64,000 nucleotides of DNA, from the NCBI RefSeq assembly GCF_003086295.3, contig NC_092054.1, forward strand, positions 58,815,546-58,879,545, written 5' to 3'. Under the pieces are notes generated by a model. The model saw nothing but the letters and a program-made list of their open reading frames with translations, was not told the origin of the DNA and did not search any database. Within the stretch, counting starts at the first letter, position 1; every line of letters starts with the position of its first letter. The translations under genes and the position numbers were made by a program. This stretch comes from Arachis hypogaea (taxonomy: Eukaryota > Streptophyta > Magnoliopsida > Fabales > Fabaceae). Shown here piece by piece: positions 27,422 to 61,256 of this stretch.

Positions 27422-27426
27422 AACTG

Positions 27427-28746
27427 CAAGGAAGTATGTTCTTATTATTGGCTATAAAGGTTGTAATTGGGGTTTAGAAGGTGAGAAGCAAGTGATTTGA
27501 ATGACAAGTAGAGTAAATGGCAATTAAAATAAATAAATACTATAAAGCAAACTTCTAGCAAGGTAAGAGAAATTGGAAGTCCAACTTAGTTATCTCTCTC
27601 AACAATAATGAAAGTTGAATCTAAATTCCACTTAGTTAACCTTTACTAAAGTAAAGGAAAGTCAAGGGACTAATTAGTTTGACCTTCGAATCCTTTTTAT
27701 TTCCTAAGAAAAAGTTGGGGTTATTGAAGTTCAGTTCAATTAGCAAGATAACGATTATCAATTATGCTGAGTTTAATAATGTTGAGTTACTGATTTCTTA
27801 ACCAAGACCAAAAGGGAAAAAGTAAATTGTTGGAATAAAAATATCCTTAGATAGAAAGCAATGATAACACAAATTAAGGAGAAAGCAATCAATAACTAAA
27901 ATACCTCAAATAATCATTAATTCAAATCATAACATGGGAAGGATTCATAAGTCAAGTTGGCAACATTTATAGGTAAGAATAAAAGCATTGAAGTAAATAT
28001 TAAACCTGGATCGAGAGTCACTCTTACAAACTAAGAGAAGTCCTAAATCCTAATCCTAATCCTAAGAGAGAGAGAGGAGAGAACCTCTCTCAAACTAAAT
28101 CTAAATCATGGAAAGTGAAAATTGGCGAGCTCTCTCTGAATGGATGCGTTTCCCCACTTTGTAACCTCTGGTCTATGCCTTCTGCACTTGGATTTGGGCC
28201 AAAAAGGGCTTCAGAATTCGCTATGAGCGTTTTCTACAATTTCTGGTGTGTGGCCTCTGTCACGCGTCCGCGTGGGTCACGCGGTCGCGTCATTCAGAGC
28301 ATTTCTTTGCCACGGGGTCGCGTCAGTCATGCAACCGCGTCATGTGCGTTTTGCTTAAGGCGCGTGGTCGCGTCAGTCATGCGGCCGCGTCGCTGCTGAT
28401 TCGCACTTGGCACGCGATCACTTCGTCCATGCAATCGCGTGGATGCCAGTTTCTTCAGAAGCTCCGTTTTGTGCTTTCTTTCCATTTTTGTATGTTTCCT
28501 TTTCCATCCTTTAAGTCATTCTGCCTTAGAAAATCTGAAACTACTCAACACACTAATCACGGCATCGAATGGAAATAAAGGTAATTAAAATAATTAATAT
28601 TAAAGCTTAAGAAACATGTTTTTCACATACATCACATAATAAGGAAGGGAAAGTAAAACCATGCAATTAATATGAATAAGTGGGTGAAGGATTGAATAAA
28701 TCACTCAAACTAAGCACAAAATAACTCATGAAATATGGGTTTATCA
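27427..28746 (-). repeat. Left (3') LTR of Element 4, second part
   Basis: It resumes with CAAGGAAGTATGTTC directly after Element 5's TSD and ends GGTTTATCA at 28746. It is almost the same as 42051-43365; by eye the two differ at about two positions per hundred. A CGCGTCCGCGTGGGTCACGC-type palindromic cluster lies at about 28258-28445. Confidence 0.9.
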
Positions 28747-28976
28747 ACCTCCCCACACTTAAACAATAGCATGTCCTCATGCTAAATCCAAGGTAAAGAA
28801 TAAGGTAAGGTTAAAGTGGTGGAATGTTATGCAATGCAACTTATTCTAAATGCATCTACCTAATTTGATGGGCAGTAAGGCTAATTTGATGATGTTCTCG
28901 AAAGTGATAAGATCCAAACGTAAGAACTCCTGGTGGCTATGGATTTAGAGATTGCAAAAAAAAAAAAAAAAAAAAA
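28747..28976 (-). other. 3' end of Element 4 interior with polypurine tract and poly(A)
   Basis: The minus strand reads GTGTGGGGAGGT directly before the LTR (28758-28747), a good polypurine tract for plus-strand priming. The next 200 bases are noncoding and end in a run of 22 A at 28956-28977, where the pararetrovirus begins. Confidence 0.7.
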
Positions 28977-29057
28977 GAGTTAAGACCCCAGATCCAAAAA
29001 TTTGAGTGATAGTTTAGTGATAATGTTTATGTTCTTTCTGAACCAAAGGAGGGCAAT

Positions 29058-29071
29058 GATATCAGATTTTA
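29058..29071 (+). promoter_or_regulatory. Possible degenerate tRNA-Met primer site of the pararetrovirus
   Basis: TGATATCAGATTTT matches the consensus TGGTATCAGAGC at nine of its first ten bases and then diverges. It lies eight bases before the movement protein ATG. Caulimovirids prime minus-strand synthesis from initiator tRNA-Met, so the position is plausible, but the mismatched tail leaves doubt. Confidence 0.35.
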
Positions 29072-29078
29072 TGAAAAT

Positions 29079-30272
29079 ATGTCTAAACTCTTCCGTTCTC
29101 TTTCTAGACGACTTTCTTTTTCTTCTCCGTCTTCCTCCTCCACCTCTCCAATCCATTCTTCCTCCAATCCCCTTACTGAGAAAGTGGCTAGGCCTGATGA
29201 ACTTTCTCCCAAACACAATATCTTTGAAGAAGAAGTTTGCTTCGAAGATATCAATCAAGCCATTGATAACTGGGAGATACCCAAAATCCCCCAAGATGAG
29301 CTTTATGTCCCTGACGACAACAAAAGAAAATCAGACTATATCATCAAGACCGCTGAGAATAATATTCCTCTGGGACCAGATTCTGGTGAGGAATTCCATC
29401 TCTTAACCAAAGCATCTGTCAGAGAACATGCCCGTCACTACAGATATCTTCACATAGGATGTGTCCAGGTTGCAGTCAAACCTCTCATCAGAGAAGGCTT
29501 GAATGCTTCCATCCTTATGTGTCTTAGAGATATTAGACACAATGATTTCCAAGACTCCCTTATCGGAACAGTTGAAACAAGTCTCGGACATGGTCCAGTT
29601 TATTTCAACTGTTTTCCAAACAAAACAGTCAGCCTGTTAGATACCAACATCCTTGATTCTCTCTTCCTAAACATCCGAATTCATGGTCTTAACATGAAGG
29701 AAGGATCCATTCCAGCCGCTTTAATCTATAGGATTCAATACAAGGTCATGAACACCTGTAATTCTAGGGTCCTTCTTAAATCCCAAGATCGTGAAACTAC
29801 TTTGTTTGTCACCGATATGACAAAGGCCAACGTCATGATTCCGAGGCTCATAAGGTGGGATGAAATTGATCTCCCCCAGTCATGGTCTATTGATAGAGCT
29901 ATCCCTACACAACCTAGACAAGCACCTCTCCTAAGAGAAATAAAACAGGATGAATCCGGGAAAGTAGAAATTTTCTTCGATAGAAGAAACTCTTTTTCCT
30001 CCAGATCAGAAGCAGGGACATCTAATGATTTTGCTTCAGCAAGAAGGTCTTTTTCTGTAACTTCTCAATCTCAGTTTTCAAAATTTTCAAAACCCGTACA
30101 TTCTGAAATCAATATTTCGGGATTACAAAATAATTCAAATATTTCCCAACCAGTTTATCAAACCGATGATAAGCATTCAGATGATGATATTGAGATAGAA
30201 TCTTCCATTCAATCTCCAACATACTCATCTATGCATGGTGCTCAATATTCTTCTGTGAATAATGCCCAATGA
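29079..30272 (+). CDS. Pararetrovirus movement protein (30K superfamily)
   Basis: An intact 397-codon frame. The N-terminus is serine-rich and basic (about residues 1-35). The core (about 100-270) shows the 30K-type fold signature of caulimovirid movement proteins. YLHIGCVQVAVKPL is followed by CLRDIRHNDFQDSLIG with the conserved aspartate at residue 151, then GPVYFNCFPNKTVSL. The protein family enlarges plasmodesmata for cell-to-cell spread. The C-terminal 100 residues are serine-rich and poorly conserved. Its stop overlaps the next start as ATGA (30269-30272), suggesting termination-reinitiation. A separate movement protein gene differs from badnavirus-type genomes, where it is fused to the capsid polyprotein. 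Confidence 0.88.
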   Translation: MSKLFRSLSRRLSFSSPSSSSTSPIHSSSNPLTEKVARPDELSPKHNIFEEEVCFEDINQAIDNWEIPKIPQDELYVPDDNKRKSDYIIKTAENNIPLGPDSGEEFHLLTKASVREHARHYRYLHIGCVQVAVKPLIREGLNASILMCLRDIRHNDFQDSLIGTVETSLGHGPVYFNCFPNKTVSLLDTNILDSLFLNIRIHGLNMKEGSIPAALIYRIQYKVMNTCNSRVLLKSQDRETTLFVTDMTKANVMIPRLIRWDEIDLPQSWSIDRAIPTQPRQAPLLREIKQDESGKVEIFFDRRNSFSSRSEAGTSNDFASARRSFSVTSQSQFSKFSKPVHSEINISGLQNNSNISQPVYQTDDKHSDDDIEIESSIQSPTYSSMHGAQYSSVNNAQ

Positions 30273-33200
30273 GTAGCACAGAATTTATTATAGATAGGGA
30301 AGCATTACGTAAAAACCTTGAATCTGAGGAATATGACCTCCATAGAGAATGGTATTTACGTACGCACACAGCTACTCAAATTGCATCATTCAAAGAAAAA
30401 TATTACAGTTTTCTAAAAGAGGTTGAGATGCATATTCCTTTCTTTGAATGGTTTCATGCTTATTCCATCAAAAACAATCTGGTTTATCCTTTCAAAAACA
30501 AAGAAAACTTGCTTTCAGCAAATGTTATTTCAACTTGGAAAGTTAAAGATGGGAATTTAGTTAGATCTGAGTTTCCTCCAAAAGGACCTTTTGTTATTTC
30601 AAGCACAGAAGGACATAACCCTGTTATGGCTTCTCCTTTTAAAACAAAAAATATTGATGAAGCTGTCGCCCCAAAAGATATTAAAAACCTTATTGAACAA
30701 TCTAATTACACCAATAGGTTTTTACAATGTCTGGGTGACAACCTTTCATCTTTGGGATCTACTTTTTCTTTCAAAAATGCTTCTAACGCCACTACTTCTA
30801 AAAGTATTGAAAAACCCCTTTTTAAACCTTTTAAAATGAGTAGTAAAGCGAAGCAAAATCTTAAAACTTCCATTTTAAAACAACAATCCGGTGATTCAGA
30901 AGTTATTCAAAAAATTGACCAACTTTTAAACCGTTTCTCTACCGCCCCTGAAACTCCAAACTCTGGTGAGTCTACTTCTCGTATTCAAACACGCTCATCC
31001 AAAGCCGTTAATGCCCTTTGTCATGAGTCTAACGACTCCTCCTCCGAAGAAAGTGATGGTTCCTACAAATCATCCCTCAAAATCAGCCCTATTTTGACAA
31101 ACTCCCTAACCAAGTGGAAAGGTTTAACCAAATCCTCTACGTACGGTTACAATCGTGTTTCCGCTCCCGACCTAGCCCTCGAAGAAAGAGAACTAGGTTT
31201 TGTCAGCTTCAATGCCAATAATATCTATGAATGGAACATAGATGGTAAAACTGAATATAACATCATGAGTATGCTTCAGCATATGACTATGGTAGGCACA
31301 GCCTATCAAGCTGCCCATGAAACTTCTGAAGAAGCAATAGCCAATGTTATTGTTTCTGGTTTCAGTGGCCAACTCAAAGGATGGTGGGATAACTACCTTT
31401 CGGATAACCAAAAACACTCAATCTTCTCTGCCATAAAAGTCAATGATCAGAACGAACCGATCATTGGTGATGATGGGGAACCCATCCCCGATGCTGTTAA
31501 TACCCTAATATTTACCATAGCAAGCCATTTCATTGGTGATCCATCTCTCTGGAAAGATCGTTCGGCTGAACTACTTTCCAATCTCAGATGCAAAACTTTG
31601 TCTGATTTCCGGTGGTATAAAGACACCTTTCTTACCAGGGTTTACACCAGAGAAGATAGTCAACAACCTTTTTGGAAAGAAAAGTTCCTTGCTGGACTCC
31701 CAAAATCTCTTGGAGATAAAGTAAGGGACAAAATACGTAGCTTAACCCCGGATGGGATAATACCCTATGACGAGTTAAGTTATGGTCAGCTAGTTTCTTT
31801 TATCCAGAAGGTTGCTCTAAAGATTTGTCAAGATGACAAAATCCAAAGACAACTTGCTCGAGAAAAAACCCAAAATCGTATTGATCTGGGAACTTTCTGT
31901 GAACAATTCGGTCTTCCTGCTTGTCATCCAAAAAAATCCAAAAGACCATCCAATCGAAAAGTTTTTATTAAACCTAATCCTGAAAAGAATTTCAGAAGGT
32001 CTAGAAGAGGTTTTCAAAACCCTAAAAATGAAAAGAATTTCCAAAAAAATTTTCAAAATAACCCACAAAAGAACCCCATTATTTGCTATACATGTAAGAA
32101 ACCTGGACATATTAGCAAATACTGCCGGTTAAAAAGAAAGATTAATAATCTAAACCTTGATCCTCTGATTGAGGAACAGATTAATAATCTGATGTTAGAA
32201 AGTTCAGAAAATGATTCTGACCAAGAATCTTCGGATGATATCAATAACATCGAATTAGATGACATTGAATCATCCTCAGATTCAGATGTCAAGCAAATTG
32301 GTGTTTTATCCAAAGATCAAGATCTCCTATTTGATGCTATTGAGGCTATTGACAATCCTGAACAAAAGAAAGACTTTCTTTTGAAACTAAAAAAATCTCT
32401 ACAAAAGGAGAAAAAACCCAAAAATCTGGTCCTTAGCAATAAATATGATGTTAAACCTATTTTCAAAAAATTAGAAAAACAAGTTATTCGTCCCATAACT
32501 ATTCAGGACCTCCAATCTGAGGTCAACAATCTCAAAAGAGAAATCCAGGAAATTAGGAGACATCAAGACAATCATCAACTTATTCTCTCCCAATTAATGC
32601 AAGTGGGAGAATCTGGTGATGAACTTGATCAAACAGAGTGTTCTAAGGAACAAGAAAATAAAATCTCTGACGACAACGAGGGAAAAAAAATTCTGAGAAT
32701 AATCAATGTATTCTCTTTTATGAAGCATCGTGTTCATATCCGAATTGTCGTTAAAGATTTTGTTTTTGACACCATTGCACTCTTTGACTCAGGTGCAGAT
32801 TCAAACTGTATTAAGGAAGGTTTGGTCCCCACAAAATATTTCGAAAAAACTACTGAACGCCTTAGCTCAATAACAGGAGAAAGGCTAAGTGTCAATTTCA
32901 AACTAACAGATGTTTTTATTGAAAAGGGTAATATCAGGATTCCCACTGAATTTATTATTGCAAAAGATATCAAAAATGATGTGGTCTTGGGGACACCTTT
33001 CATAATCCTTTTGTTTCCTTATCTGGCAGACTTTCCAGGGCATACCTCTTTTGTTCAGGGACAAGTAACCTTCTTTGAGTTCCTGGATTCACCAAAACAA
33101 AAATCTTTAAATCTAATTGAATCCAAGACTAGACAGATTTGTTTCTTAAAAGAAGAAATCTCTTTTAAAACCCTTGAATCTCAACTCTCCCAACCAAAGA

Positions 33201-34639
33201 TTCAGAACAAAATTAAAAATCTTTTGAACCAAATTGAGAAGTCTATTTGTTCAGATTTGCCTCATGCTTTCTGGAATAGGAAAGAACACGTCGTTGATCT
33301 TCCTTATGAAAAGAATTTCAAAGAATCAAAAATCCCTACAAAAGCCCGCCCAATTCAAATGAATGAGCAGCTTTTGCAGCATTGTCAAAAGGAAATAAAA
33401 GATCTTTTGGATAAAGGATTAATTCGTCCTAGCAAAAGTCCTTGGTCTTGCTCTGCTTTTTATGTTAATAAGCAAGCTGAAATAGAACGAGGAACCCCTA
33501 GGCTTGTCATCAATTACAAACCTCTGAATGAAGCCTTGCAATGGATTCGTTATCCTATCCCAAACAAAAAAGATTTGCTTAGTAGGTTAAATTCTGCAAA
33601 CATTTTCTCAAAATTTGATATGAAATCCGGTTTTTGGCAGATTCAAATCACCGAATCAGACCGATACAAAACAGCATTTACAGTTCCATTTGGACAGTAT
33701 GAATGGAATGTAATGCCTTTTGGTCTGAAAAATGCCCCATCTGAATTTCAAAAAATTATGAATGATATTTTCAATCCATATTCAGATTTTGCAATCGTTT
33801 ACATTGATGATGTTCTAATTTTTTCCCAAACTTTACATGAACATTTCAAGCATGTTAAAACTTTCATGTACATCATCCAAAAAAACGGTCTTGCTGTCTC
33901 CAAGTCAAAAATTGTTCTCTTTCAAACAAAAATCCGTTTTCTTGGTCATATAATCTTCCAAGGCACTATAACTCCAATTGAAAGATCAATTTTGTTTGCA
34001 GTAAAGTTTCCAGATTATATCCTTGATAAACCTCAGCTCCAGAGGTTCCTAGGTTGTCTCAATTATGTTTCGGATTTCATCCCAAATCTTAACAACCTCA
34101 TTAAACATCTCCATGATAGGCTTAAGAAAAATCCTCCACCTTGGACAGAAAAACATTCTGATATTATCAGGTTCCTTAAAACCAAAGTCCGCAATCTTCC
34201 TTGTCTTTACTTACCGGTTCCTCATGCATTCAAAATAGTGGAAACAGATGCATCAGATTTAGGATATGGCGGTATCCTAAAACAAAAACTGCATGATAAA
34301 GATTGTATCATTGCATTTACATCCAAACATTGGAATAGTACTCAACAAAAATATTCCACTATCAAAAAAGAAATTTTAGCTATTGTTTTATGCATCACAA
34401 AATTTCAATCTGACTTACTCAACCAAAAATTTTTAGTCCGAGTTGATTGTAAATCAGCTAAAGATGTTTTACAAAATGATGTTAAAAATCTTGCATCAAA
34501 ACAAGTTTTTGCCAGATGGCAAGCTATTTTAAGCGTCTTTGATTTTGATATTGAGCATATCAAGGGCAACTCAAACTCTCTCCCTGACTTTCTCACACGT
34601 GAATATTTGCAGGGAGATAAACAGAAAGAAGATGCCTAA
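30269..34639 (+). CDS. Pararetrovirus polyprotein: capsid, protease, reverse transcriptase, RNase H
   Basis: An intact frame of 1456 codons. The capsid region lies at about residues 290-600. It is followed by a CCHC zinc knuckle starting at C606 (CYTCKKPGHISKYC) inside a basic stretch, then an acidic/coiled segment (about 640-800). The aspartic protease active site is DSGAD at D840. RT includes MPFGLKNAPSEFQ and the catalytic YIDD at 1178-1181. RNase H starts near ETDASDLGYGG (D1327) and ends near 1440. This enzyme set copies pregenomic RNA into DNA; no integrase is present, as expected for the family. All catalytic residues I can identify are retained. An uninterrupted frame of this length suggests a recent insertion. 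Confidence 0.93.
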   Translation: MSSTEFIIDREALRKNLESEEYDLHREWYLRTHTATQIASFKEKYYSFLKEVEMHIPFFEWFHAYSIKNNLVYPFKNKENLLSANVISTWKVKDGNLVRSEFPPKGPFVISSTEGHNPVMASPFKTKNIDEAVAPKDIKNLIEQSNYTNRFLQCLGDNLSSLGSTFSFKNASNATTSKSIEKPLFKPFKMSSKAKQNLKTSILKQQSGDSEVIQKIDQLLNRFSTAPETPNSGESTSRIQTRSSKAVNALCHESNDSSSEESDGSYKSSLKISPILTNSLTKWKGLTKSSTYGYNRVSAPDLALEERELGFVSFNANNIYEWNIDGKTEYNIMSMLQHMTMVGTAYQAAHETSEEAIANVIVSGFSGQLKGWWDNYLSDNQKHSIFSAIKVNDQNEPIIGDDGEPIPDAVNTLIFTIASHFIGDPSLWKDRSAELLSNLRCKTLSDFRWYKDTFLTRVYTREDSQQPFWKEKFLAGLPKSLGDKVRDKIRSLTPDGIIPYDELSYGQLVSFIQKVALKICQDDKIQRQLAREKTQNRIDLGTFCEQFGLPACHPKKSKRPSNRKVFIKPNPEKNFRRSRRGFQNPKNEKNFQKNFQNNPQKNPIICYTCKKPGHISKYCRLKRKINNLNLDPLIEEQINNLMLESSENDSDQESSDDINNIELDDIESSSDSDVKQIGVLSKDQDLLFDAIEAIDNPEQKKDFLLKLKKSLQKEKKPKNLVLSNKYDVKPIFKKLEKQVIRPITIQDLQSEVNNLKREIQEIRRHQDNHQLILSQLMQVGESGDELDQTECSKEQENKISDDNEGKKILRIINVFSFMKHRVHIRIVVKDFVFDTIALFDSGADSNCIKEGLVPTKYFEKTTERLSSITGERLSVNFKLTDVFIEKGNIRIPTEFIIAKDIKNDVVLGTPFIILLFPYLADFPGHTSFVQGQVTFFEFLDSPKQKSLNLIESKTRQICFLKEEISFKTLESQLSQPKIQNKIKNLLNQIEKSICSDLPHAFWNRKEHVVDLPYEKNFKESKIPTKARPIQMNEQLLQHCQKEIKDLLDKGLIRPSKSPWSCSAFYVNKQAEIERGTPRLVINYKPLNEALQWIRYPIPNKKDLLSRLNSANIFSKFDMKSGFWQIQITESDRYKTAFTVPFGQYEWNVMPFGLKNAPSEFQKIMNDIFNPYSDFAIVYIDDVLIFSQTLHEHFKHVKTFMYIIQKNGLAVSKSKIVLFQTKIRFLGHIIFQGTITPIERSILFAVKFPDYILDKPQLQRFLGCLNYVSDFIPNLNNLIKHLHDRLKKNPPPWTEKHSDIIRFLKTKVRNLPCLYLPVPHAFKIVETDASDLGYGGILKQKLHDKDCIIAFTSKHWNSTQQKYSTIKKEILAIVLCITKFQSDLLNQKFLVRVDCKSAKDVLQNDVKNLASKQVFARWQAILSVFDFDIEHIKGNSNSLPDFLTREYLQGDKQKEDA

Positions 34640-34664
34640 AAAGGCAACCTTAGCCTCAGCATGA

Positions 34665-36089
34665 GGCAGAGGCATTCGCCTAGCCCTACCAGGGCCAATC
34701 AGAAGATCTGGGTCTAGTACCCCAACAGAGTCATCTACCCAACAACCTACTCAACAATCTGGGTCATTTACCCAACATCTCACCCAAACCCAACAAGCTG
34801 GGCCATCTACACAACAAACCACCCAAAAATCTTTTGAACCACAAAACAACCAAGCCAAACAATCCAAAGCAGACTATGCCATCCCAATCGAAACCCTCCT
34901 AGCCTTACAGGACCAGGGTCTCACTAAACTCAACAAAAAATCTTGGGCCGACCTTTGCAGTGAATCCGATGAAGAAATTGACCTATCACAATTAATATCT
35001 CAGGTAGCCAATCGAAGAACAGTCATCCAAATAGGAAAACAAAAGTCTGTCGTCTCGACACCCCAAACATCCTCAACCACTACCAAAACTCAAAAAACCC
35101 AAACCAATTACATATCTACAAACAAAACCGCAAATATTATCCACATAGAGCCTGAATTCTGGGATAATTCTCCAAACAAAGTCATCCCAAAGATTTTCCC
35201 TACTGGATTCCACTTCAGACCCTTAGCACCTAATAAAACTCGCCATTTCTACGAATTCATCTTAATAGATACTGACTCAGTATCTATTAAACATTACAAG
35301 GATAAAACCAATCCCGAATTTATAACCCATTCAACCATTCAAATTCTCAAAATTTTATCCCCAAAGCAATTTGGGAATAACCTAAACAAAATTCAAAAAT
35401 TTTCTCAAAATTATGACCCAATAGGTTTTAATTATTGGGATTACATGGAAGCCTGGACTAAAGTATTTTGGTTTCAAAATACTCAGTTCAGACATTCATG
35501 GTTAATTTATTTTAAAAGAAAAATCAATTATGTTTTTCCAAATTGGTTCTATCAATGGTGGGACTTCTTTGGACCAATCCAAGAAATTTTACCCTCACCA
35601 ACAGATGAAGGGTATAAACTTTTTCAATCAAACTTTAACAATCAGGAAACATGTGTTCCTGTAATGTAAAAATTTTTCTCAACATTTTCATTGGCATGGG
35701 TATTCTCATGGCAATACAAGTATGCAAAACCAAACCACCCCAAATCATTTCCAATCCTTCAAAGGCATGGTTATGTCAAATGGTGGTCTCAATTTGATGC
35801 TTCAATGGCCTACCCAGAGAAGGTCAGAGAATGGTTCAAATCCAATCCTGAAAGTCAAAAGATTTCAGATCCAGAAACTGCCCTGTTCCTCAATTAAAAA
35901 GCCCAAATTGCTGCAGCCCTTGCAGGAGCTCAATCGAAAGAAACTCTAGCAAAACATCTCCAGCAAATCATGCAGATGATTGAAGAAGACAAAAATCACA
36001 AGGATGATCCCACTTCCTCAGCAGAATCCTCAAGCAGTTATAATCAGAATGAAGATGACTGCTTTGGAATCGATCTAGGAGAGGATTAG
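34665..36089 (+). pseudogene. Third gene of the pararetrovirus, function unknown, two in-frame stops
   Basis: One frame of 475 codons begins after a TGA at 34662-34664 and ends at the TAG at 36087-36089. It is interrupted by TAA at 35667-35669 and 35895-35897, with no frameshift between. No in-frame ATG lies near its start; an ATG at 34661 is one base out of frame, so a start may have been lost by an indel. The N-terminus (to about residue 75) is Q/T/S/P-rich. The middle has a tryptophan-rich block, with FHFRPLAP near 35213, DYMEAW near 35441-35457 and NWFYQWWDFFG near 35539-35572. The C-terminus is acidic with a helical segment. I do not recognise the family. Position after RNase H matches where some caulimovirids keep a transactivator/inclusion-body gene, but I see no motif of that protein. 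Confidence 0.75.
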
Positions 36090-36133
36090 TCTTTAATCTT
36101 CAAAATCCATGTAATCAAAAAATCCATTGTTAA

Positions 36134-36206
36134 CCTGTATTGTAGAAATAGTACCGGTAATATGCACCTGTACTGTAGAAACAGTAGAATATCCAATTAT
36201 AAAAGG
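36134..36206 (+). promoter_or_regulatory. Pregenomic-RNA promoter of the pararetrovirus
   Basis: A TATA box TATAAAAGG lies at 36198-36206, about 110 bases after the last gene, as in the 35S-type promoters of caulimovirids. Upstream are two 20-base near repeats starting CCTGTA at 36134 and 36167 (two mismatches), the second containing the inverted repeat TACTGT-AGAA-ACAGTA. Transcription would start near 36230. Confidence 0.8.
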
Positions 36207-36336
36207 AAGCCTTGCATTCATTGAGAGGCACCCTTCAGTTTAGATATCATAGAGAGAAGTTAGAGAGAGAGACTCTGAGAGTTCCCTTGTAAGCTCTCCA
36301 GCTCTTCTTCTTCCCTCTCCTTTATTTCAATCATTC

Positions 36337-36342
36337 AATAAA
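36337..36342 (+). terminator. Poly(A) signal of the pararetrovirus
   Basis: AATAAA lies about 110 bases after the expected RNA start, preceded by C/T-rich sequence and followed by a T-rich region. This close spacing of TATA box and AATAAA is the arrangement that gives caulimovirid pregenomic RNA its short terminal redundancy. Confidence 0.75.
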
Positions 36343-36396
36343 ACTTTCAATCAGTTCTTTATTTTCGAGTCTTCATATTTTTACATTTCTACAGCT

Positions 36397-36531
36397 GCAT
36401 ATGTGTGCGGACTACCGCCACATCTAACTTCATATTTATTTTCCTGCTCTTGCATCTATCATAAGCATATGCGTGCGGACTACCGCCGCATCTAACTTCA
36501 TATTTACTTTCCTGTTCTTGCATCTATCATA
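36397..36531 (+). repeat. 68-base tandem duplication in the pararetrovirus leader
   Basis: Two adjacent copies start GCATATG at 36397 and 36465 with a handful of differences (for example CGCCACATC against CGCCGCATC). They lie in what would be the pregenomic-RNA leader. Confidence 0.85.
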
Positions 36532-36610
36532 CTGCAACCTCTTTAACCTTGTCTACTCCCTCTTCCCCTTTCCCTCCTTGATCCACTTCGGGACATCTAT
36601 ATATATATAG

Positions 36611-38249
36611 CCAACCCTTAAATAATAAAGCATTTTAGCAAATGAGATGGGAAATAAAAATATTGTACAAACTTGCAAAACAATTAGTAAATTAAGCACA
36701 GATATATGTTGATGAGTTATTGAACCCTCACTGGATTTTGTGTTTACCCTCTAGTCACTCAGTGTTTATTGGGTTTATTCACTCTATTTTTCTTTTTATT
36801 CTTACTTTCTATAACTTTGTTCTTCATCTAACCAATCAACAATTATAGAGTACAGTCATACCAAAAGTCATGAGGTCTTTAATTAAGGTTGTAATGGGGC
36901 CAAGGTAAAGGTAAGGATATATGTATAAGGCTAAGTGAGCTAATAAGTGAATCCTCAATTAGACTAAGATCTCACCTAACATACATATTTAGTAGAATAA
37001 GCTTCTTTACCAATTTTTCCATATTATCCCACTTGTTGTCACATGCTCATGTTTCAATTTTTGTTTTTATCCCATGTGCATTGCTTTTATTTTGCATTGG
37101 GGAATTCTTTTGTATTCCCTTTTATTAAATGCTGAAAAATAACTTCTTTTTTTTTTAATGCACATGGTAATTGATCACTTTGATTTCTCATGAGCATGCT
37201 TCCCAAATTTTCTGAATTATTTTATTTCTTTCAACTTTTCTACCTTTTGTTTCTATCATCCATGTTCCCAATAGGTTTCCCACATTTTAATCTATTCATA
37301 ATTTTCTATCTTAAGCTAACCAAGGATTCAACTTGGAAATTTATTTTGTTTTTCTGCTTAAGGCTAGTAGTGTGGCTAAATAGAATAAAAGGGATTTTTA
37401 AAGGCTCAAGGGGGCTAACAAGGGTAATGTGAAAGGTAGGTTATTTTGGGGTAAGTGAGCTAAAATCAAATGATGGCCTTAATCATTCTTTTGGCATGTA
37501 TCTATATTCTATAATTGGACATATAGATTAAAGCAAAGTAAAGAACATCAGAATAAAAAGAAGCGAAACACACAGGAATGAAATTATGGTTTGAATGCAA
37601 CCATACAATTAAGCTCAATACTCACAGGCTGTGTATTCTCTAACTCAAGCATCATATATCATTCATATATGTTATGCAGGTTTAGTTAAAAATTCCCATT
37701 ATTCTCATAAAAAATTATTTAGGGTAGCCTTTAAAGTTTTAATGTTTCTCCTTGATGAAATGTTGTCAACTTAACTATATGATGTAATGCTATATATACA
37801 AGGTTTATGGATTTAAATCTGTTATGTTCAATTTCTTAGCTTACTTCCTTTTTATATTTTTCAATTTAACTATGCTATCTTATGATAAAAAGGGTAAACT
37901 ATACTAATTAATCCACTAATAAGTCAGAATTGCAAACTAAACTAAATAACTAAAAATGAAAAAATGCAAAAATAGAGTAAAAATACATAAAAGCAGCAAT
38001 GTATAAGTACTCAGAAAAAAAAGAAAGAAAAATATAGAAAAATATCCAAAATAAAAGAAAAAAAGAGATGTAGTGGTTCACCAAAATAAAACGCCAGAGA
38101 TGGCGACCTCCCCACACTTAAAATGAAGCATCGTCCCTGATGCTCAGTCAGGCCGGGTGTGAAGGGGTGTCATCACTGGTAGGGATGGTAGCTGGAGGCT
38201 CTGTGGTGGTGGTGGGCTGAAGGTTTGGCTACTGTAGAGGCGGTGCTGA
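36611..38249 (-). other. Noncoding interior of Element 4, 3' of the env-like gene
   Basis: AT-rich and noncoding. It matches 59693-61260 of Element 7 almost throughout (for example GAACCCTCACTGGATTTTGTG at 36723 and 59814), so it belongs to the element and not to the virus. The match ends at the TA repeat, marking the virus boundary. No gene is seen. Confidence 0.7.
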
Positions 38250-39611
38250 CTAGATCGGGATCTCCGGATCTGCAGCCTCTATCTGATGCGTAACCTCCTG
38301 ATGCGGGGCAGCCTGCTCTCTGGCTGCACGCTGATGGGTCTCCTCCTGGAAATGAGTCTCCTCCTCGTGCTCATCCTCCTCCGCCTCTGATGGCTCAGAT
38401 GGTGTGTCGGGCTCAGAGGGGATGTCACCACCCTGTCGGATCATCAGCTTCAGATGCGAATAGTGTCGCTGGCTGCAACGCTCCAATCTCTCATATCGGC
38501 GCCGGTTACAGTGCTCCATCTGATCAAGCTGTTGGAATAGGCGGTGCACGAGGCGGTATACGGGCTCAGAGGCAGGTGGAGGTACAGTGGTAGCAGCAGG
38601 GGCAGGAGTGGCAGCTGTGGATGAAGAGGGTCCAGTAGACGGTGGGGCTGTCTCATCAGTAGCAGTGAAGGGTGGTGGTCTGTAGCCCAAGGCTAGGAAG
38701 TTTCTGCTGTGAGGAATGATCTTCCTGCAGTCCACCGCTGGTGGTCTCTCATCGGCATCCTCCCATGGCACGTCAGCTCGACGGCCTAGCTGTGTAACCA
38801 AATACGGGAAAGGGAGGGTGCCTCGGACGTTGACCCTGGCCATATAATGCCGGATAAAGCGTGGTAGATAAAGGTCCTTACCCTCCAGCACACACCATAG
38901 GAGAGTGATCATAGCAGCTGGGATCTCCGTCTCATGAGTACTCGGCATGACATAATTGCTCAAGATTTGGTGCCATAACCGAGCCTCATCATTTAAGTAC
39001 GCCCTCTTGATCCCTCTAGGCATGGTGGTGTCCTGACCCATCTCCCAAGGAACAGTCGGGTCGAGAGCTATCCTTGCCTTTACAGCATCCCAATCAAACT
39101 GCATCAGGCGCATGTCCTCCTCAACCTTTGAATAACCATCAGGCTGATCGGACTTGGCTGGGAGCTGGAGAATGTCCTCGATGGCCTCCTCAGTGACCAG
39201 AATTTATTTTCCTCTCAGGTGTACGACATCTAGGGTGGTGAGGTAGTAGTTGCAGTAGAATTCCCGGACCCAAGATGCGTTGACCTCTGTCAGTATTCTC
39301 TCCAGAAAGAACCAACCCCTTTGCTTGATTTGCTCAGTGGTGTACTGCTGGAGTGCTTCTGGAATCTTCAGAGTTCTCTCCAAGTATAGATTCCTGGAGT
39401 TTGCGAAATCCGGGTACTTCAGCTCACAGTACCGGTTTGCAAATTTTATTGGATCAGTTGCAGGGAGCAGCTGGTCAGCTTTTTCCTGCTGTGTAAAGTT
39501 CTTCTCCCGCCATGAGAAATCATGCATGAGGGCAATGATGGATTGGGAGGAATCTCCTCTCTTGCGCTTGCCAGTAGCCTTGCCTTTTCCTTTCCTCTGT
39601 GAGGCAGACAT
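38250..39611 (-). pseudogene. Env-like (putative plant transposon protein) gene of Element 4
   Basis: Read from an ATG at 39611 (MSASQRKGKGKATGKRKRG, lysine-rich start) to the stop at 38250. The frame is open further upstream, but the Element 7 copy begins at the same MSASQ. One TAA at 39206-39204 breaks it where Element 7 has glutamine. Conserved blocks include ELKYPDFANSRNLYLERTL, WVREFYCNY and RFIRHYMARVNVRG. The tail is proline/alanine/threonine-rich then acidic. The family sits between pol and the 3' LTR of Athila-type elements; function unknown. Confidence 0.75.
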
Positions 39612-40624
39612 CCTGAAAAATAGAAAACCAGGATATGGATAAAAATAGGGAAGCAAATAGGCAATTTAAACAAAGAAAAATCAAAGCGGCAAAGGAGAAT
39701 TAGAATCAAGTAAATGAGTCAAGTAAATGTGCATTAAGGATTCTTTAGTAGTTTAAAATTTGGAAAGGAAGAATTGACAATCCAGAATGTATCAGAATTT
39801 CAAGTTAAATAGAAAAAAAATCATTAAGGGGGTCGGTGGCGGCGGCAATGGTGGCTAGGTGGTGGTTGAGAGAAGAGGAGGAAGAGAGGGAGAAGAGGGC
39901 TGGGGGGCTGCACGACTGATAGGGTTCGCGTGGCTGGGGAGGGTTATATTTTCAAATCCACGCGGTCGCGTGGGGGATGCGGTCGCGTGGTGGGGGTGAA
40001 AATGGGGGTAACGCGATCGGGTAAGTCGCGCGATCGCGTGAGAGGGGTAGGAGAGGGGGTGACGCGATCGCGTGGGTCGCGCGATCGCGTCGCTGGACAT
40101 TGTGCTAAACTCACGACTCCAGCACTGTTTTAGCACAACTCTCTGTCTCCTTCTAGGGTGATGTGCAATCCATGCGACGCGATCGCGTCGCTCACGCGGT
40201 CGCGTGGGATTGGTACTGTGCAAGTGACGCAATCGCATGGGGCATGCGATCGCGTGGGCCAAATTGTGCAAAACGCACAAGGGCCGCACGATTCCATCCT
40301 AACTCTCTGGACGTTGGATTTTTGACGCCGATCTCTACGGCACGCGGCCGCGTGGATGACGCGGTCGCGTAGATAGTATATTCGCAATATGACGCGATCG
40401 CATGGGGCATGCGGTCGCGTCGTGCATCTTTTTTTTTTTTTTTTTTTGAATTCAGGATGCAATGCTTAATGTGAATGCTATGCATGATTCCAGGTTTAAT
40501 AAAAATAAAATTCAAAACTAAATAAAATTAAAATTGCAAAAGGAACGATCATACCATGGTGGGTTGTCTCCCACCTAGCACTTTTAGTTAAAGTCCTTAA
40601 GTTGGACATCGGAGGAGCCTCTTG
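39612..40624 (-). repeat. Upstream region of the Element 4 env-like gene, with CGCGATCGCG palindromes
   Basis: From about 39955 to 40430 there are more than fifteen units of GCGATCGCGT/GCGGTCGCGT type, each a short palindrome, alternating with 15-30 base spacers. A run of T lies at about 40429-40447. The motif GGTGGGAGACAACCCACC at 40555-40575 (minus sense) corresponds to the GGGAGGCAACC motif of the other elements. No gene is supported; open frames here follow from the repeats. Confidence 0.7.
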
Positions 40625-41922: not shown

Positions 41923-43365
41923 AAGTATAGTTTCTAAACCTTCAAAAGTCCTTTCATACAAAGGTTTTGGGTGTCAGAAGTAACAAACCCCTTTTAAAAA
42001 TTGTTAACCGAGTATTCAAACCTCGGGTCATCTTCTCAAGGAACTGCAAGGAAGTATGTTCTTATTATTGGCTATAAAGGTTGTAATAGGGGTTTAGAAG
42101 GTGAGAAGCAAGTGATTTGAATGACAAGTAGAGTAAATGGCAATTAAAATAAATAAATACTGTAAAGCAAACTTCTGGCAAGGTAAAAGAAATTGGAAGT
42201 CCAACTTAGTTATCTCTCTCAACAATAATGAAAGTTGAATCTAAATTCCACTTAGTTAACCTTTACTAAAGTAAAGGAAAGTCAAGGGACTAATTAGTTT
42301 GACCTTCGAATCCTTTTTATTTCCTAAGAAAAAGTTGGGGTTATTGAAGTTCAGTTCAATTAGCAAGATAATGATTATCAATTATGCTGAGTTTAATAAT
42401 GTTAAGTTACTGATTTCTTAACCAAGACCAAAAGGGAAAAAGTAAAATTGTTGGAATAAAAATATCCTTAGATAGAAAGCAATGATAACACAAATTAAGG
42501 AGAAAGCAATCAATAACTGAAATACCTCAAATAATCATTAATTCAAATCATAACATGGGAAGGATTCATAAGTCAAGTTGGCAACATTTATAGGTACGAA
42601 TAAAAGCATTGAAGTAAATATTAAACCTGGATCGAGAGTCACTCTTACAAACTAAGAGAAGTCCTAAATCCTAATCCTAATCCTAAGAGAGAGAGGAGAG
42701 AACCTCTCTCAAACTAAATCTAAATCATGGAAAGTGAAAATTGGCGAGCTCTCTCTGAATGGATGCGTTCCCCCACTTTGTAACCTCTGGTCTATGCCTT
42801 CTGGACTTGGATTTGGGCCAAAAAGGGCTTCAGAATTCGCTATGAGCGTTTTCTACAATTTCTGGTACGTGGCCTCTGTCACGCGTCCGCGTGGGTCACG
42901 CAGTCGCATCATTCGGAGCATTTCTTTGCCACGGGGTCGCGTCAGTCATGCGACCGCGTCATGTGCGTTCTGCTTAAGGCGCACGGTCGCGTCAGTCATG
43001 CGGCCGCGTCGCTGCTGATTCGCGCTTGGCACGCGATCGCTTCGTCCATGCGATCGCGTGGATGCCAGTTTCTTCAGAAGCTCCGTTTTGTGCTTTCCTT
43101 CCATTTTTGTATGTTTCCTTTTCCATCCTTTAAGTCATTCTGCCTTAGAAAATCTGAAACTACTCAACACACTAATCACGGCATCAAATGGAAATAAATG
43201 TAATTAAAATAATTAATATTAAAGCTTAGGAAACATGTTTTTCACATACATCACATAATAAGGAAGGGAAAGTAAAACCATGCAATTAATATGAATAAGT
43301 GGGTGAAGGATTGAATAAATCACTCAAACTAAGCACAAAATAACTCATGAAATATGGGTTTATCA
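41923..43365 (-). repeat. Right (5') LTR of Element 4
   Basis: It matches 17398-17521 plus 27427-28746. It ends GGTTTATCA at 43365, next to TSD ACCAA. The first 52 bases of the LTR are missing, together with the adjacent primer site, which a single internal deletion would explain. The CGCG-type palindromic cluster lies at about 42880-43065. Confidence 0.9.
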
Positions 43366-45821
43366 ACCAACCTCACAAAAGTGTTCGACACCATCAGAAA
43401 GCATGGTATGTGGCTTAACCCAGCAAAATGTACCTTCACAGTAGAAGCCGGCAAATTCCTGGGCTTCATGCTCACACAGAGAGGAATTGAGGCAAACCCA
43501 GATAAATGCCAGGCTATACTCAGCTTGAAAAGTCCGACCTGTGTTAAAGAAGTACAACAGCTCAACGGAAGACTGGCAGCTCTGTCCAGGTTCTTAGCCG
43601 GTTCGGCCATAAGATCGCTCCCCTTTTACGCGACATTAAGAAAGGAAAAAAGGTTTGAGTGGACCAAAGAGCGCGAAAAAGCCTTTCAAGATTTCAAAAG
43701 TTTCTTGGGACAACCACCCATTCTTACCCGACCACGGGAAGGAGAAGCACTCATACTATACCTGACAGTAGGAAATCGGGCAATAGCTTCAGCACTAGTT
43801 AGAAAAGATGAAAGCAGGCAACAACCCATCTACTTCATCAGCAAAGCCCTACAAGGGGCCAAGCTAAACTATGAAAAAATAGAAAAGTTTGCCTACGCTC
43901 TCATAATCACTTCCTGACGACTTTGCCCATACTTTCAAGCACACACTATTAAGGTTCAGACCAGCCAGCCCATAAAAAGTATTGTACAGAAGACAGACTT
44001 AGCTGGAAGAATACTACAGTAGGCAGTCGAGTTGTCCAAAGTCGATTTGCAATCTGAAGCTCGAACCGCCATCAAATCACAGTATCTGGCTGACTTCATC
44101 GCCAAGTACACAGATACCTCGAGAACTCCCATAAAGTGGAATCTCTACGTGGACGGATCGTCAAACAAAGCCGGGAGTGGGGCAGGTGTGATAACAGAAA
44201 GTGATCAGGAAACCCAAATTGAGCTATCACTAAGTTTGAATTCCCTGCTTCAAATAATCAAGCCGAGTACGAAGCATTACTGGTTGGTTTGAGGCTGGCT
44301 AAGGAGGTAGGAGTTCAAAAGCTCACCATCTTCAGTGATTCTCAAATAGTTACCTCACAAATAGAAGGGAAGTACCAAGCTAAAGACCCCACCATGAAGA
44401 AATATCTGGACAAGACTAGAGAACAGCTCAGATAACTCGGGGAATATGAAATCCAACACATACCTCGGGAACAGAACGCTCGAGCTGATGCACTCTCAAA
44501 ACTAGCCAGCACCAAACCAGGGGGCAATAATAGAAGCCTCATCCAGGAAACACTGCAAAGCCCATCAATTTTAGAGGAAGAAAAGGTCTTAGCCATATCA
44601 GGTCAGGATCAGGCGTGGATGACCCCCACAATCAAATACCTCAAAACAGAAACACTCCCCGCAGACAAGAAAGAGGCAAAGCATCTAATACGAGAAGCAC
44701 AGTACTACACCATGGTGGGCGACATCTTATACAGGAGAGGGTTCTCAACACCCCTCCTAAAATGTGTACCGACCTCCAATACAAAAGAGGTCCTGGAAGA
44801 AGTACACAGTGTTATGTGTGGTAACCACTTGGTGGCACGAGCTCTTTCCAAAAAGGTACTCCGAGCTAGATTCTTTTGGCCGACCTTGTAAAAAGAAGCA
44901 ATAGAGTTCGTCAAGACATGTTCACCATGTCAAAAGAATGTTAACTTCCACATCACCCCACCAGAAGAGCTCATCAGTGTAACGTCACCCTGGCCGTTCG
45001 CAAAATGGGGACTAGACCTCCTCGGACCCTTTCCCCAAGGATCGGGACAAGTCAAATTCCTCATTGTAGGGGTGGACTATTTTACAAAATGGATTAAGGC
45101 AGAACCCCTAGCCAATGCCACTGCTCAACAAAGTCGTAAATTTCTATATAGGAATATTATTACAAGGTTTGGAGTCCCTTACTCCATCACCACAGACAAT
45201 GGCACTCAATTTACTGATACATGTTTCAGAAACTTGGTGACCGACTTAAAAATAAAGTACCAATTCACATCCGTAGAACACCCACAAGCTAATTGACAAG
45301 CAGAAGCTGCCAACAAAGTCATACTAGCAGGGTTGAAGCGAAGACTACAAAGTGCAAAGGAAGCTTGGGCCGAAGAGCTCCCACAAGTCCTATGGGCATA
45401 TCGAACAACTCCACACTCCACCACAGGAGAATCACCTTTCTGACTTGCTTACAAAATGGAGGCAATAATCCCAGTAGAGATAGAGGAAGGATCCCCCAGA
45501 ATAATCCTCTACAATGAAAATACCAATTCCCAAACTCAGAGGGAAGAGCTCGACCTACTTCCAGAAGTCCGAGAAAGAGCTCGGATTAAAGAGGAAGCGC
45601 TAAAGCATCGAATGGCCTCAAGGTATAATCAGAGAGTAGTCCAGCGAAGCTTCGCCAACAATGATCTCATCTTAATCTGAAATGACATCGAAGCAGGTCG
45701 ATCAGGAGAAGGAAAGCTAGTAGCTAACTGGAAAGGACCTTACTACAAAGTGTCCGACATGGAAGGGCGAGAGCTACCAAGGTTATTGCATGCATGTAAC
45801 CTGAGAAGGTACTATAGTTAG
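43366..45821 (+). pseudogene. Rest of pol of Element 3: RT end, two RNase H domains, integrase
   Basis: It continues the RT frame directly from 17345 (LTKVFDTIRKHGMWLNPAKC). RNase H follows at about 43700-43915. After a linker there is a second RNase H (WNLYVDGSSNKAGSGAGVI near 44140-44195, DSQIVTSQI near 44337), a duplication characteristic of Tat elements. Integrase spans about 44620-45821 with a zinc-binding region (EVHSVMCGNHL, then CSPCQKN), the core motifs GLDLLGPF, TTDNGTQF and QAEAANK, and a C-terminal WKGPYYKV. In-frame stops are at 43915-43917, 44889-44891, 45294-45296, 45441-45443 and 45678-45680, with a further stop near 44433 and a frame change near 44240. It is not functional. 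Confidence 0.88.
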
Positions 45822-59244: not shown

Positions 59245-60085
59245 GAGAGTATGTATGTGTTAAGTGAGAACTCAGGTTAGTCAAAGATTCAAATGATAGT
59301 TCACTTGGCCATTCATATATCCTCGCCCTTACCTTAGCCCCATTACAACCTTGAAAAGCCCTCATGATATTTATATTTGTACACTAAATATTTGTTGATT
59401 GGTTATATGAAGAACAAAGTTTTGGACTGCATGACAAGAGGAGATTTGAGTGGATTAACACTAAACACTTGAGCGATTAGAGTGCATATACACATCTGGT
59501 GAGGGTTCAATTGCTCAATTCCATATATCCATCTTTGATCATTGCTTATCTTGCAAGTTGTGAACTCTTTTGAATAACTCAATTCAATTGTGAATGTGCT
59601 TTGATATGATTGATTTAGCCCTTGATTGTGCATATATGATTTCTCGGAAATTTGACACACTTTGACCACATATATATATATATATATATATAAAATATAG
59701 CCAAACCTTAGATAATGATAAAGCACTTTTACAGTTGAGATGGGAGAGAAAAACATTTTATAAACTTGCAAGACAATTAATAATTCAAGCAGAGATATAT
59801 GTTAATGAGCTATTGAACCCTCACTGGATTTTGTGTTTACTCTCTAGTCACTCAGTGTTTATTGGATTAATCACTCTATTCTTCTTTTTATCCTTCCTTT
59901 CTATAACTTTGTTCTTCATCTAACCAATCAACAATTATAGAATATAGGCATACAAAAGTCATGAGGTCTTTAATTAAGGTTGTAATGGGGCAAAGGTAAA
60001 GGTAAAGGTATATGTATAAGGCTAAGTGAGCTAATTAAGTGAATCCTTGATTAGTCTAAGGTCTCACCTAACATACATACTTTGT
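59245..60085. repeat. Large imperfect inverted repeat centred on (TA)n
   Basis: The left arm (about 59245-59669), reverse-complemented, matches the right arm (about 59693-60085) in order. Examples are GAACCCTCAC near 59505 and 59814, TTTGTTCTTCATMTAACCAATCAACAA near 59390-59415 and 59908-59935, and TCATGAGG...AAGGTTGTAATGGGG near 59340-59370 and 59960-59990. The centre is an AT microsatellite at 59669-59692. As single-stranded RNA or DNA it could fold into a long hairpin. Confidence 0.8.
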
Positions 60086-61256
60086 AAAGCAAAACTTCTT
60101 TACCTATTTTCCCACTTTTTCCCACTTTTGATGTTACATGCTCATACTTTAACTTTTGTCCCATGTGCATTTATTTTGCATTTGGGAAATTCTTTTGTAT
60201 CCCCTTTATTCAAATACTGAAAAATAACATTTTTTTTATTGCACATGGTAATTCAATTATTTGATTTTACATGAGCATGCTTCCCAAAATTTTTATTTGA
60301 ATAATTTTATTCTTTTCAACTTTTCTACCTTTTGTTTTTATCATCCATGTTCCCAATAGGTTTCCCACACTTAAACAATTATACACTTTCTATCTTAAGC
60401 TAACCAAGGATTCAACTTGGGATTTTTATTTCGTTTTTCTGCTTAAGGCTAGTAATGTGGCTTATAGAATAAGAGGGGATTTAAAGGCTCAAGGGGGTTA
60501 ACAAGGGTGATGTAAAAGGTAGGCTAATTTGGGATAAGTGAGCTAAAATCAAACAATGGCCTCAATCACTCTCTTGGTATGTATTTCTATTCTATAATCA
60601 GACATATAGATTTAAACAAAGTAAAGAACACCAGAATAAATAAGAAGGGCGGAACACACAGGAATTAAATTTATGGTTTGAATGTAACCATACAATTAAG
60701 CTCAAAACTCACAGGCTGTGTATTCTCTAGCTCAAAAATCATTTATCAATTATGTATGTCATGCAAGTAAAATTAAAAGTTCCCATTATTCTCAATGTAA
60801 AACTTAAGGTGGCTTTAAAGTTCTAGTGTTTCTCCTTGATGAAATGTTGTTAACTAACTAACATGTAATGCTATATACACAAGGTGTGTGGATTGTTTCT
60901 ATTATGTTCAAGTTCCTAGTTTACTTCCTTTTTATATTTTCAATATAAACTAAGCTATCTTATGCTAAAAAGGGTAAATTATACTAATTAATCCACAATT
61001 TCTATAACTAATAAGTTAGAATTGCAACTAAACTAAATGGCTAAAATATGAACTAAAGTGCGAAATGCAGAAAATAGAGTATAAATACATGAAAATAGCA
61101 ATGTATAAGTATTGGGAAAATAAAAATAAAAATAAAGAGAAAAATACAGAAAAATAGCAAAATAAAATGAAAGAGTCTGTAGTGGTTCACCAAAAGAATA
61201 CGCCAGAGATGGCGACCTCCCCACACTTAAAATGAAGCATTGTCCCTGATGCTCAC
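60086..61256 (-). other. Noncoding interior of Element 7, 3' of the env-like gene
   Basis: AT-rich, matches 37000-38249 of Element 4 closely. No gene is seen. Confidence 0.65.

What the first reader, a model, noticed from the sequence alone, without database searches (positions are those of the whole stretch)
28977..36610. Nearly unit-length pararetrovirus with a three-gene layout and an intact 1456-codon polyprotein gene
It has a separate movement protein gene, a single capsid-protease-RT-RNase H gene, and a third gene after RNase H. Badnavirus-type genomes fuse the movement protein into the polyprotein, and caulimovirus/soymovirus-type genomes separate capsid from RT, so this arrangement points to a less well described lineage. 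Both main genes are uninterrupted, which is unusual for an endogenous copy. The lineage assignment is inference; the gene order is read directly.
Basis: partly seen in the sequence, partly recalled or inferred. Interest (0 to 1): 0.9.

Follow-up and report, generated by a model that had tools for sequence, protein, structure and literature searches.

The report
Broken florendovirus copy in peanut chromosome
This is a broken copy of a plant DNA virus sitting in a chromosome of what is very likely peanut; its three-gene layout, already published for a soybean relative, likely makes it a member of the known florendoviruses, and its join points suggest how such viral DNA may get trapped at TA repeats.

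Summary
The gene order is real: movement protein 29079-30272 (397 codons, open), capsid-protease-RT-RNase H 30269-34639 (1456 codons, open), third gene 34632-36089, broken by three in-frame stops. Viral DNA spans about 28865-36597 and lacks the tRNA primer site plus leader start (about 200 nt) that sister copies have. The lineage claim fails: Geering et al. 2014 (PMC4241990) describe this layout for Glycine max virus, a florendovirus with ORF1 divided after the MP. No named florendovirus sequence was reachable, so the genus rests on layout, third gene, RT host spread and the TA-repeat site, not on a tree. Open main genes are usual here: no stop in ORF1 of 14 of 15 other near-full copies, nor in the RT-RNase H piece of 22 of 29. 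Sixteen empty copies of the host repeat show a (TA)n array where the element sits. Ten genome places join the viral right end at the primer site to (TA)n; 13 of 40 left junctions read break within about 13 nt of the same site, six of them against other viral sequence. Likely mechanism: reverse-transcribed DNA opened at the primer site and captured at a break. New member of a known kind.

The parts
28865..36597 (+). integrated florendovirus-like copy (whole element)
   Evidence: Left limit from identity with sister copies L059, L064, L065; right limit from empty-site copies and viral right ends
28300..28863 (+). host repeat, 5' flank
   Evidence: Homology to the 18 other repeat loci fetched (17 sites) stops at 28863
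28865..29078 (+). truncated leader; the primer binding site and leader start (195-213 nt) are missing
   Evidence: Compared with L059, L064 and L065, where TGGTATCAGAGCC lies upstream
29079..30272 (+). ORF1, movement protein, 397 aa; PF01107 at 29376-29765
30269..30272 (+). ATGA stop/start overlap of ORF1 and ORF2
   Evidence: 16 of 16 copies covering it
30269..34639 (+). ORF2, capsid-protease-RT-RNase H, 1456 aa
30299..30487 (+). DUF7588
   Evidence: E 1.9e-16
31208..31861 (+). DUF7746 and caulimovirus coat protein conserved domain
   Evidence: E 2e-32 and 5.6e-11
32081..32125 (+). CCHC zinc knuckle
   Evidence: E 5.9e-4, just below Pfam's cut-off
32729..32974 (+). aspartic protease (RVP)
   Evidence: E 2.9e-6
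33488..33955 (+). reverse transcriptase (RVT_1)
   Evidence: E 2.7e-35
34142..34537 (+). RNase H
   Evidence: E 4.1e-25 and 2.1e-22
34632..36089 (+). third gene, 485 codons plus stop, broken by three in-frame stops; its ATG lies 8 bases before the end of ORF2
   Evidence: 116 relatives of its long piece 34665-35666; no Pfam match
36198..36342 (+). TATAAA at 36198 and AATAAA at 36337: predicted promoter and poly(A) signal of the pregenomic RNA
   Evidence: function inferred from position only
36397..36531 (+). 68-bp leader duplication, two copies
   Evidence: both copies also in L059, L063 and L064
36595..37500 (+). host repeat, 3' flank, beginning in its (TA)n array

Best explanation
The stretch 28865-36597 is a 7.7-kb integrated, broken copy of a plant pararetrovirus, most likely a florendovirus of the Glycine max virus type, that was probably captured as ready-made viral DNA at a break in a (TA)n repeat. 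Shown: gene order, the conserved ATGA overlap, three stops in the third gene, absence of the primer site from this copy, empty host sites with (TA)n, and right ends of sister copies joined to (TA)n at the primer site. Inferred: as a virus it would have been transcribed from the promoter near 36198 round the circle, ORF2 would have been translated by termination-reinitiation at ATGA, its polyprotein cut by its own protease, and the DNA made by tRNA-Met-primed reverse transcription. Also inferred: the integrating molecule was open at the minus-strand discontinuity, and the plus-strand end, running a few bases into the primer site (TGGTAT), paired with TA repeats during end joining, with about 78 bp of host DNA lost at this site.
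For: Domains. Published identical layout for Glycine max virus, an extra ORF of 45-58 kDa without known domains, genomes of 7.2-8.5 kbp and a (TA)n association for florendoviruses (PMC4241990). Eight stand-alone MP frames of 371-405 aa in ena, jgi and lgn entries at 47-72% identity. Third-gene relatives: of the named ones all but two are legumes, intact length 485 aa in Arachis. RT: best named hits per genus 65-74% identical (Dionaea, Trifolium, Manihot, Acer, Vitis, Prunus, Cucumis, Cajanus), a host spread like that of the large florendovirus clusters. Sixteen empty sites with (TA)n. Right ends: of 22 places with the viral right end, 12 run on through the primer site and 7 of the other 10 pass within 0-6 nt into (TA)n; one search adds three places, ten in all. 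Left ends: 13 of 40 read break within about 13 nt of the primer site, 27 continue into viral right-end sequence.
Against: No tree with named florendovirus RTs: no reference sequence was reachable; among the 50 viral models listed none exceeded 39% identity, and the best named one had 38%. Petuviruses were not excluded by direct comparison; one petuvirus cluster also spans nine orders. The left end of this very copy lies 195-213 nt past the primer site, not at it. The exact pattern for a left end at +1 joined to (TA)n has no match. Six of the 13 broken left ends abut other viral sequence, so they may be rearrangements after or during integration rather than virus-host joins. Three of ten right ends that do not run on exactly are not joined to (TA)n. 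Not every relative has a separate MP: P0078 (42%), Lotus P0092 (47%) and Amborella P0100 (41%) run on into capsid sequence, and many NCBI gene models of Arachis and Glycine join MP with DUF7588 or DUF7746, which I take for spliced models without having checked. Transcription, translation and reverse transcription were not tested.
Confidence: 0.82

Rival explanations
1. It belongs to Petuvirus or a petuvirus-like lineage that has split its polyprotein and gained a third gene independently.
For: Petuvirus clusters are listed with Arachis; Aristotelia chilensis virus 1, filed as a petuvirus, has an ATGA overlap between its two main genes; a citrus petuvirus-like element superficially resembles florendoviruses in layout.
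Against: ICTV gives petuviruses one ORF; in Aristotelia chilensis virus 1 the first gene is 820 aa and its third ORF is on the other strand, unlike here; the exact layout is published for a legume florendovirus.
Confidence: 0.12
2. A new genus-level lineage restricted to legumes, neither florendovirus nor petuvirus.
For: Named relatives of the third gene outside legumes are only two, both weak; no listed viral RT model is above 39% identity.
Against: The RT piece is 65-69% identical to proteins of six non-legume genera (Dionaea, Manihot, Acer, Vitis, Prunus, Cucumis), above the 55-62% RT thresholds used for genus-level groups; the piece here also includes RNase H, so the comparison is approximate.
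Confidence: 0.05
3. The copy spread with the host repeat it lies in, rather than by viral DNA being captured here.
For: It lies inside a high-copy repeat (4383 and 4366 first-look candidates).
Against: The 18 other repeat loci fetched (17 sites) lack the element, and the sister viral right ends read have other flanks.
Confidence: 0.02

Closest known systems
Glycine max virus (florendovirus, Geering et al. 2014, PMC4241990)
   Same: Three ORFs from division of ORF1 after the MP domain, same domain order, extra 3' ORF without known domains, legume host; (TA)n association is reported for florendovirus loci of Glycine max
   Different: Host genus; Glycine entries are 38-73% identical in MP and 40-63% in the third gene (local alignments); the named reference sequence itself was not compared
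Lotus japonicus A virus and typical florendoviruses
   Same: Domain order, position and size of the extra ORF, genome size
   Different: MP fused to the polyprotein in one ORF
Petunia vein clearing virus (Petuvirus)
   Same: MP, CP, AP, RT and RH1 precursors
   Different: One ORF only, no extra ORF
Aristotelia chilensis virus 1 (filed as Petuvirus, PMC4411674, part 1 of 5 read)
   Same: ATGA overlap between two main genes
   Different: First gene 820 aa, third ORF antisense

Membership tests
Florendovirus (proposed genus) | RT-RNase H1 inside the florendovirus clade | tested here: inconclusive
   No named reference reachable; best named hits per genus 65-74% identical across several angiosperm families fit; no tree built
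Florendovirus (proposed genus) | Order MP, CP with zinc finger, AP, RT, RH1 | tested here: met
   the zinc knuckle is just under Pfam's cut-off
Florendovirus (proposed genus) | Extra 3' ORF of 45-58 kDa without known domains | tested here: met
   485 codons, no Pfam match to its pieces; intact 485-aa relative in Arachis; broken in this copy; homology to a named florendovirus ORF2 not tested
Florendovirus (proposed genus) | Genome 7.2-8.5 kbp | tested here: met
   7.73-kb copy; six of 11 same-strand array spacings are 7.70-8.28 kb
Florendovirus (proposed genus) | tRNA-Met consensus at genome start | tested here: met
   Missing from this copy; found in 4 of 7 sister intergenic regions fetched, L059, L063, L064, L065 (L060 and L061 were placed wrongly and matched no probe), and with the leader start at 57 places
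Florendovirus, Glycine max virus type | ORF1 divided after the MP domain, conserved between copies | tested here: met
   ATGA overlap in 16 of 16 copies covering it, of 20 fetched
Petuvirus | One ORF | tested here: not met
   Separate MP gene and third gene; criterion
Badnavirus | MP within the large polyprotein ORF, small ORFs before it | tested here: not met
   MP is a gene of its own at the 5' end; the criterion is recalled
Caulimovirus / Soymovirus | Capsid and RT in separate ORFs | tested here: not met
   Coat domain and RT in one ORF; the criterion is recalled

The most novel reading that the evidence does not exclude
Florendovirus integration is not random illegitimate recombination: the donor is a unit-length linear reverse-transcription product with both ends at the tRNA primer site, and its plus-strand tail TGGTAT is annealed to (TA)n microsatellites, giving an integrase-free but nearly site-defined capture into the chromosome.
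Probability: 0.38. Interest if true: 0.6.

Novelty: new member of a known kind. Interest (0 to 1): 0.36.

Why it matters
It shows that the separate-MP florendovirus layout reported from soybean also exists, with a conserved ATGA overlap, in what is very likely peanut. The numerous, little-diverged copies and the empty sites also give base-level junctions that make the integration mechanism of pararetroviruses testable: a defined viral end at the primer site and a defined target, TA microsatellites. Both halves were known in outline (junctions at viral discontinuities, PMC526188; TA repeats, PMC4241990); the base-level joining of the two was not seen in the passages read.

Tried and rejected
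A decayed primer site at 29058 (TGATATCAGATT) was considered first and rejected: sister copies carry the true site upstream of the part kept here. The MP model was too poor to use (mean pLDDT 30.8). Viral contigs gave no relatives. No Rfam family in 28000-37500. The third-gene profile has no significant solved-structure match (best E 0.23). The sigma-70 promoter scan is not meant for plants and was ignored. Dating: 24 private differences in 5420 sites would give at most about 0.34-0.55 My with substitution rates that I recall (1.3e-8 and 8.12e-9), and the bracketing 1.33-kb repeat pair 0.77-1.23 My; because those repeats show no clear target duplication, the second figure is weak. Subgenome names for contigs C1-C10 and C11-C20 are recalled: the 40 best RT matches, of 662 candidates, all lie on C11-C20, but other members lie on C1-C9 too, so the family is not confined to one subgenome. 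A strict left/right asymmetry of the TA joins was considered after and dropped: L104 and L108 are left joins to TA-rich DNA at or 9 nt before the primer site.

Full report
What is there. The window lies at G000:C19:58815546-58879545 of a 2.557-Gb genome; proteins up to 100% identical (over 81%) to the movement protein come from Arachis hypogaea, so the host is very likely cultivated peanut. Two open reading frames, 29079-30272 (397 aa) and 30269-34639 (1456 aa), overlap by ATGA. Pfam finds the viral movement protein in the first, and DUF7588, DUF7746, the caulimovirus coat domain, a CCHC knuckle (just under cut-off), an aspartic protease, RT and RNase H in the second. A third frame, ATG 34632 to stop 36089, has three in-frame stops and no Pfam domain in its pieces.

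Is the layout the virus's own? Yes in this family. Of 20 ORF1 regions fetched from other copies, 16 cover the ORF1/ORF2 junction and all 16 keep ATGA. In 15 near-full ORF1 copies, 14 have no stop, and one further copy has a frame-changing gap, so 13 have neither (one short match and four regions without a match left out). The RT-RNase H piece has no stop in 23 of 30 loci, the window's own included, so in 22 of 29 others; three of 30 have frame-changing gaps. The third gene (piece 34614-36059) has no stop in 13 of 21 other near-full copies, two of which 21 have a frame-changing gap, and the window's three stops are in none of them. Eight ena, jgi and lgn entries show an MP frame of 371-405 aa standing alone at 47-72% identity; whether contig ends cut some was not checked, and two more distant ones (P0101, P0109, 38-40%) also stand alone. 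P0078 (42%), Lotus P0092 (47%) and Amborella P0100 (41%) run on into capsid sequence. Many NCBI gene models of Arachis and Glycine join MP with DUF7588 or DUF7746; I take these for spliced models, unchecked.

What is it? Geering et al. 2014 (PMC4241990; section 6 and passages) describe florendoviruses of 7.2-8.5 kbp with MP-CP-AP-RT-RH1 in ORF1 and an extra ORF of 45-58 kDa without known homologues, and state that Glycine max virus has three ORFs because ORF1 is divided after the MP, conserved between its sequence clusters. The present element fits each of these points. Its RT-RNase H piece has best named hits per genus of 65-74% identity over 73-100% of its length: Dionaea, Trifolium, Manihot, Acer, Vitis, Prunus, Cucumis, Cajanus (120 of 1639 hits listed; other Cucumis and Mucuna entries are lower, 54-66%). 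Genus-level RT groups have been cut at 55% (PMC5766536, parts 1-3 of 5 read), 60% (PMC9794742, section 8) and 62% (PMC13308828, part of Results and passages). Such a host spread fits the big florendovirus clusters best, although one petuvirus cluster spans nine orders. Of the 50 viral models listed (307 with E up to 0.001) none exceeds 39% identity; Petunia vein clearing virus is not named among them and several rows are unnamed. No named florendovirus or petuvirus RT could be fetched, so the genus is inferred. De Tomas and Vicient list a florendovirus cluster spanning Arachis and Lotus, and ten identical florendovirus RTs in A. hypogaea (PMC9794742).

The third gene. A search with its long piece gave 116 proteins. 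Of those with an organism name all are legumes (Arachis, Sesbania, Cajanus, Glycine, Stylosanthes, Mucuna, Lotus, Flemingia) except weak ones from Cucumis melo and Gossypium raimondii; many entries are unnamed. Intact relatives have 485 aa (Arachis) and 514 aa (Glycine). A profile finds no solved structure. Its function is unknown; a virion-associated or translation role would be a guess.

The insertion. Homology to other copies of the host repeat stops at 28863 and resumes at 36595. Of 18 other repeat loci fetched (17 sites), all lack the element; 16 were printed between these points (one duplicate site and one fragmentary match left out), and each has about 70-80 bp of host sequence followed by a (TA)n tract of varying length. 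The window copy has lost about 78 bp of host sequence and sits in the array. Compared with sister copies, its left end lies 195-213 nt past the start of the primer site TGGTATCAGAGCC, and its right end lies just before that site. So the copy has neither the primer site nor the start of the leader.

Junctions elsewhere. The viral right-end sequence occurs at 22 places. By comparing lists, 12 run on through the primer site. The other ten were read: seven, the window included, pass within 0-6 nt of the primer-site start into (TA)n; one has a changed primer site and runs on; one passes into other sequence at once; one leaves after 11 of the 12 motif bases. A direct pattern for the join finds seven places against none for the reversed control, three of them new, so ten in all. 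Primer site plus leader start occurs at 57 places; 17 follow an exact viral right end (lists, checked). Of the remaining 40, all read, 27 follow a diverged viral right end and 13 break within about 13 nt of the primer site (one reads 21 by the lenient walk). Six of the 13 abut other viral sequence, forward or inverted, and seven abut sequence without a match to the element, four of these with a TA tract within 50 nt. Only copies that keep the right end or the primer site could be seen, so truncations elsewhere, such as this copy's own left end, are not counted. The pattern (TA)n directly before +1 has no match.

Mechanism. Preferred junctions at the intergenic region and at discontinuities were reported for rice (PMC526188, passages) and TA repeats, empty sites and small losses for florendoviruses. 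The junctions here put the two together at base level. Reverse transcription starts at the primer site, so a linear or open-circular product has its discontinuity there; the plus strand running a few bases into the primer site would end in TGGTAT, whose TAT can pair with TA repeats. Capture during repair of a TA-repeat break is the inferred mechanism. Of the 40 best RT matches, 28 lie in 10 multi-copy sites, and L059 and L065 show head-to-tail joins through an intact primer site, as described for other endogenous caulimovirids (PMC10377300, passages).

Literature limits. Searches for Arachis with Caulimoviridae or pararetrovirus, florendovirus with Glycine max, dinucleotide repeats and discontinuity/microhomology listed no paper that, by title, abstract start or the passages I opened, describes this peanut element or the primer-site/TA join; most listed papers were not opened, and the library lacks most subscription journals.

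Noticed in passing
G000 C19:39.86-39.90 Mb, C19:142.50-142.52 Mb, C15:133.64-133.66 Mb: Copies 98-99% identical to the window in RT have only about 93% identity around the ORF1/ORF2 junction, which suggests recombination between two viral variants.
   Followed up: partly
27422-28749 and 42042-43368: A 1.33-kb direct repeat pair, 97.8% identical, LTR-like, brackets the element; no clear target duplication.
   Followed up: partly
36595-39828 and 59682-62869: The host repeat that carries the element has an 80% identical second copy in the window.
   Followed up: no
34632-36089: All three stops of this copy fall in the third gene and none in the 1853 codons of the other two; chance or relaxed constraint, unexplained.
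   Followed up: no
36397-36531: A 68-bp duplication in the leader is shared by sister copies L059, L063 and L064, so it probably predates this insertion.
   Followed up: partly
28956-28976: Run of 21 A in the leader, of different length in sister copies.
   Followed up: no
P0132: A protein filed under a Nitrosopumilaceae archaeon assembly is 68% identical to this plant virus RT, probably plant DNA in a metagenome bin.
   Followed up: no
L095-L133: Among these 39 left-junction pieces GGGCCATC before the primer site predominates on C1-C9, while GGGACATC and GGGCCATC both occur on C12-C20; exact GGGACATC joins had been set aside beforehand, so this is only a hint at two virus populations.
   Followed up: no
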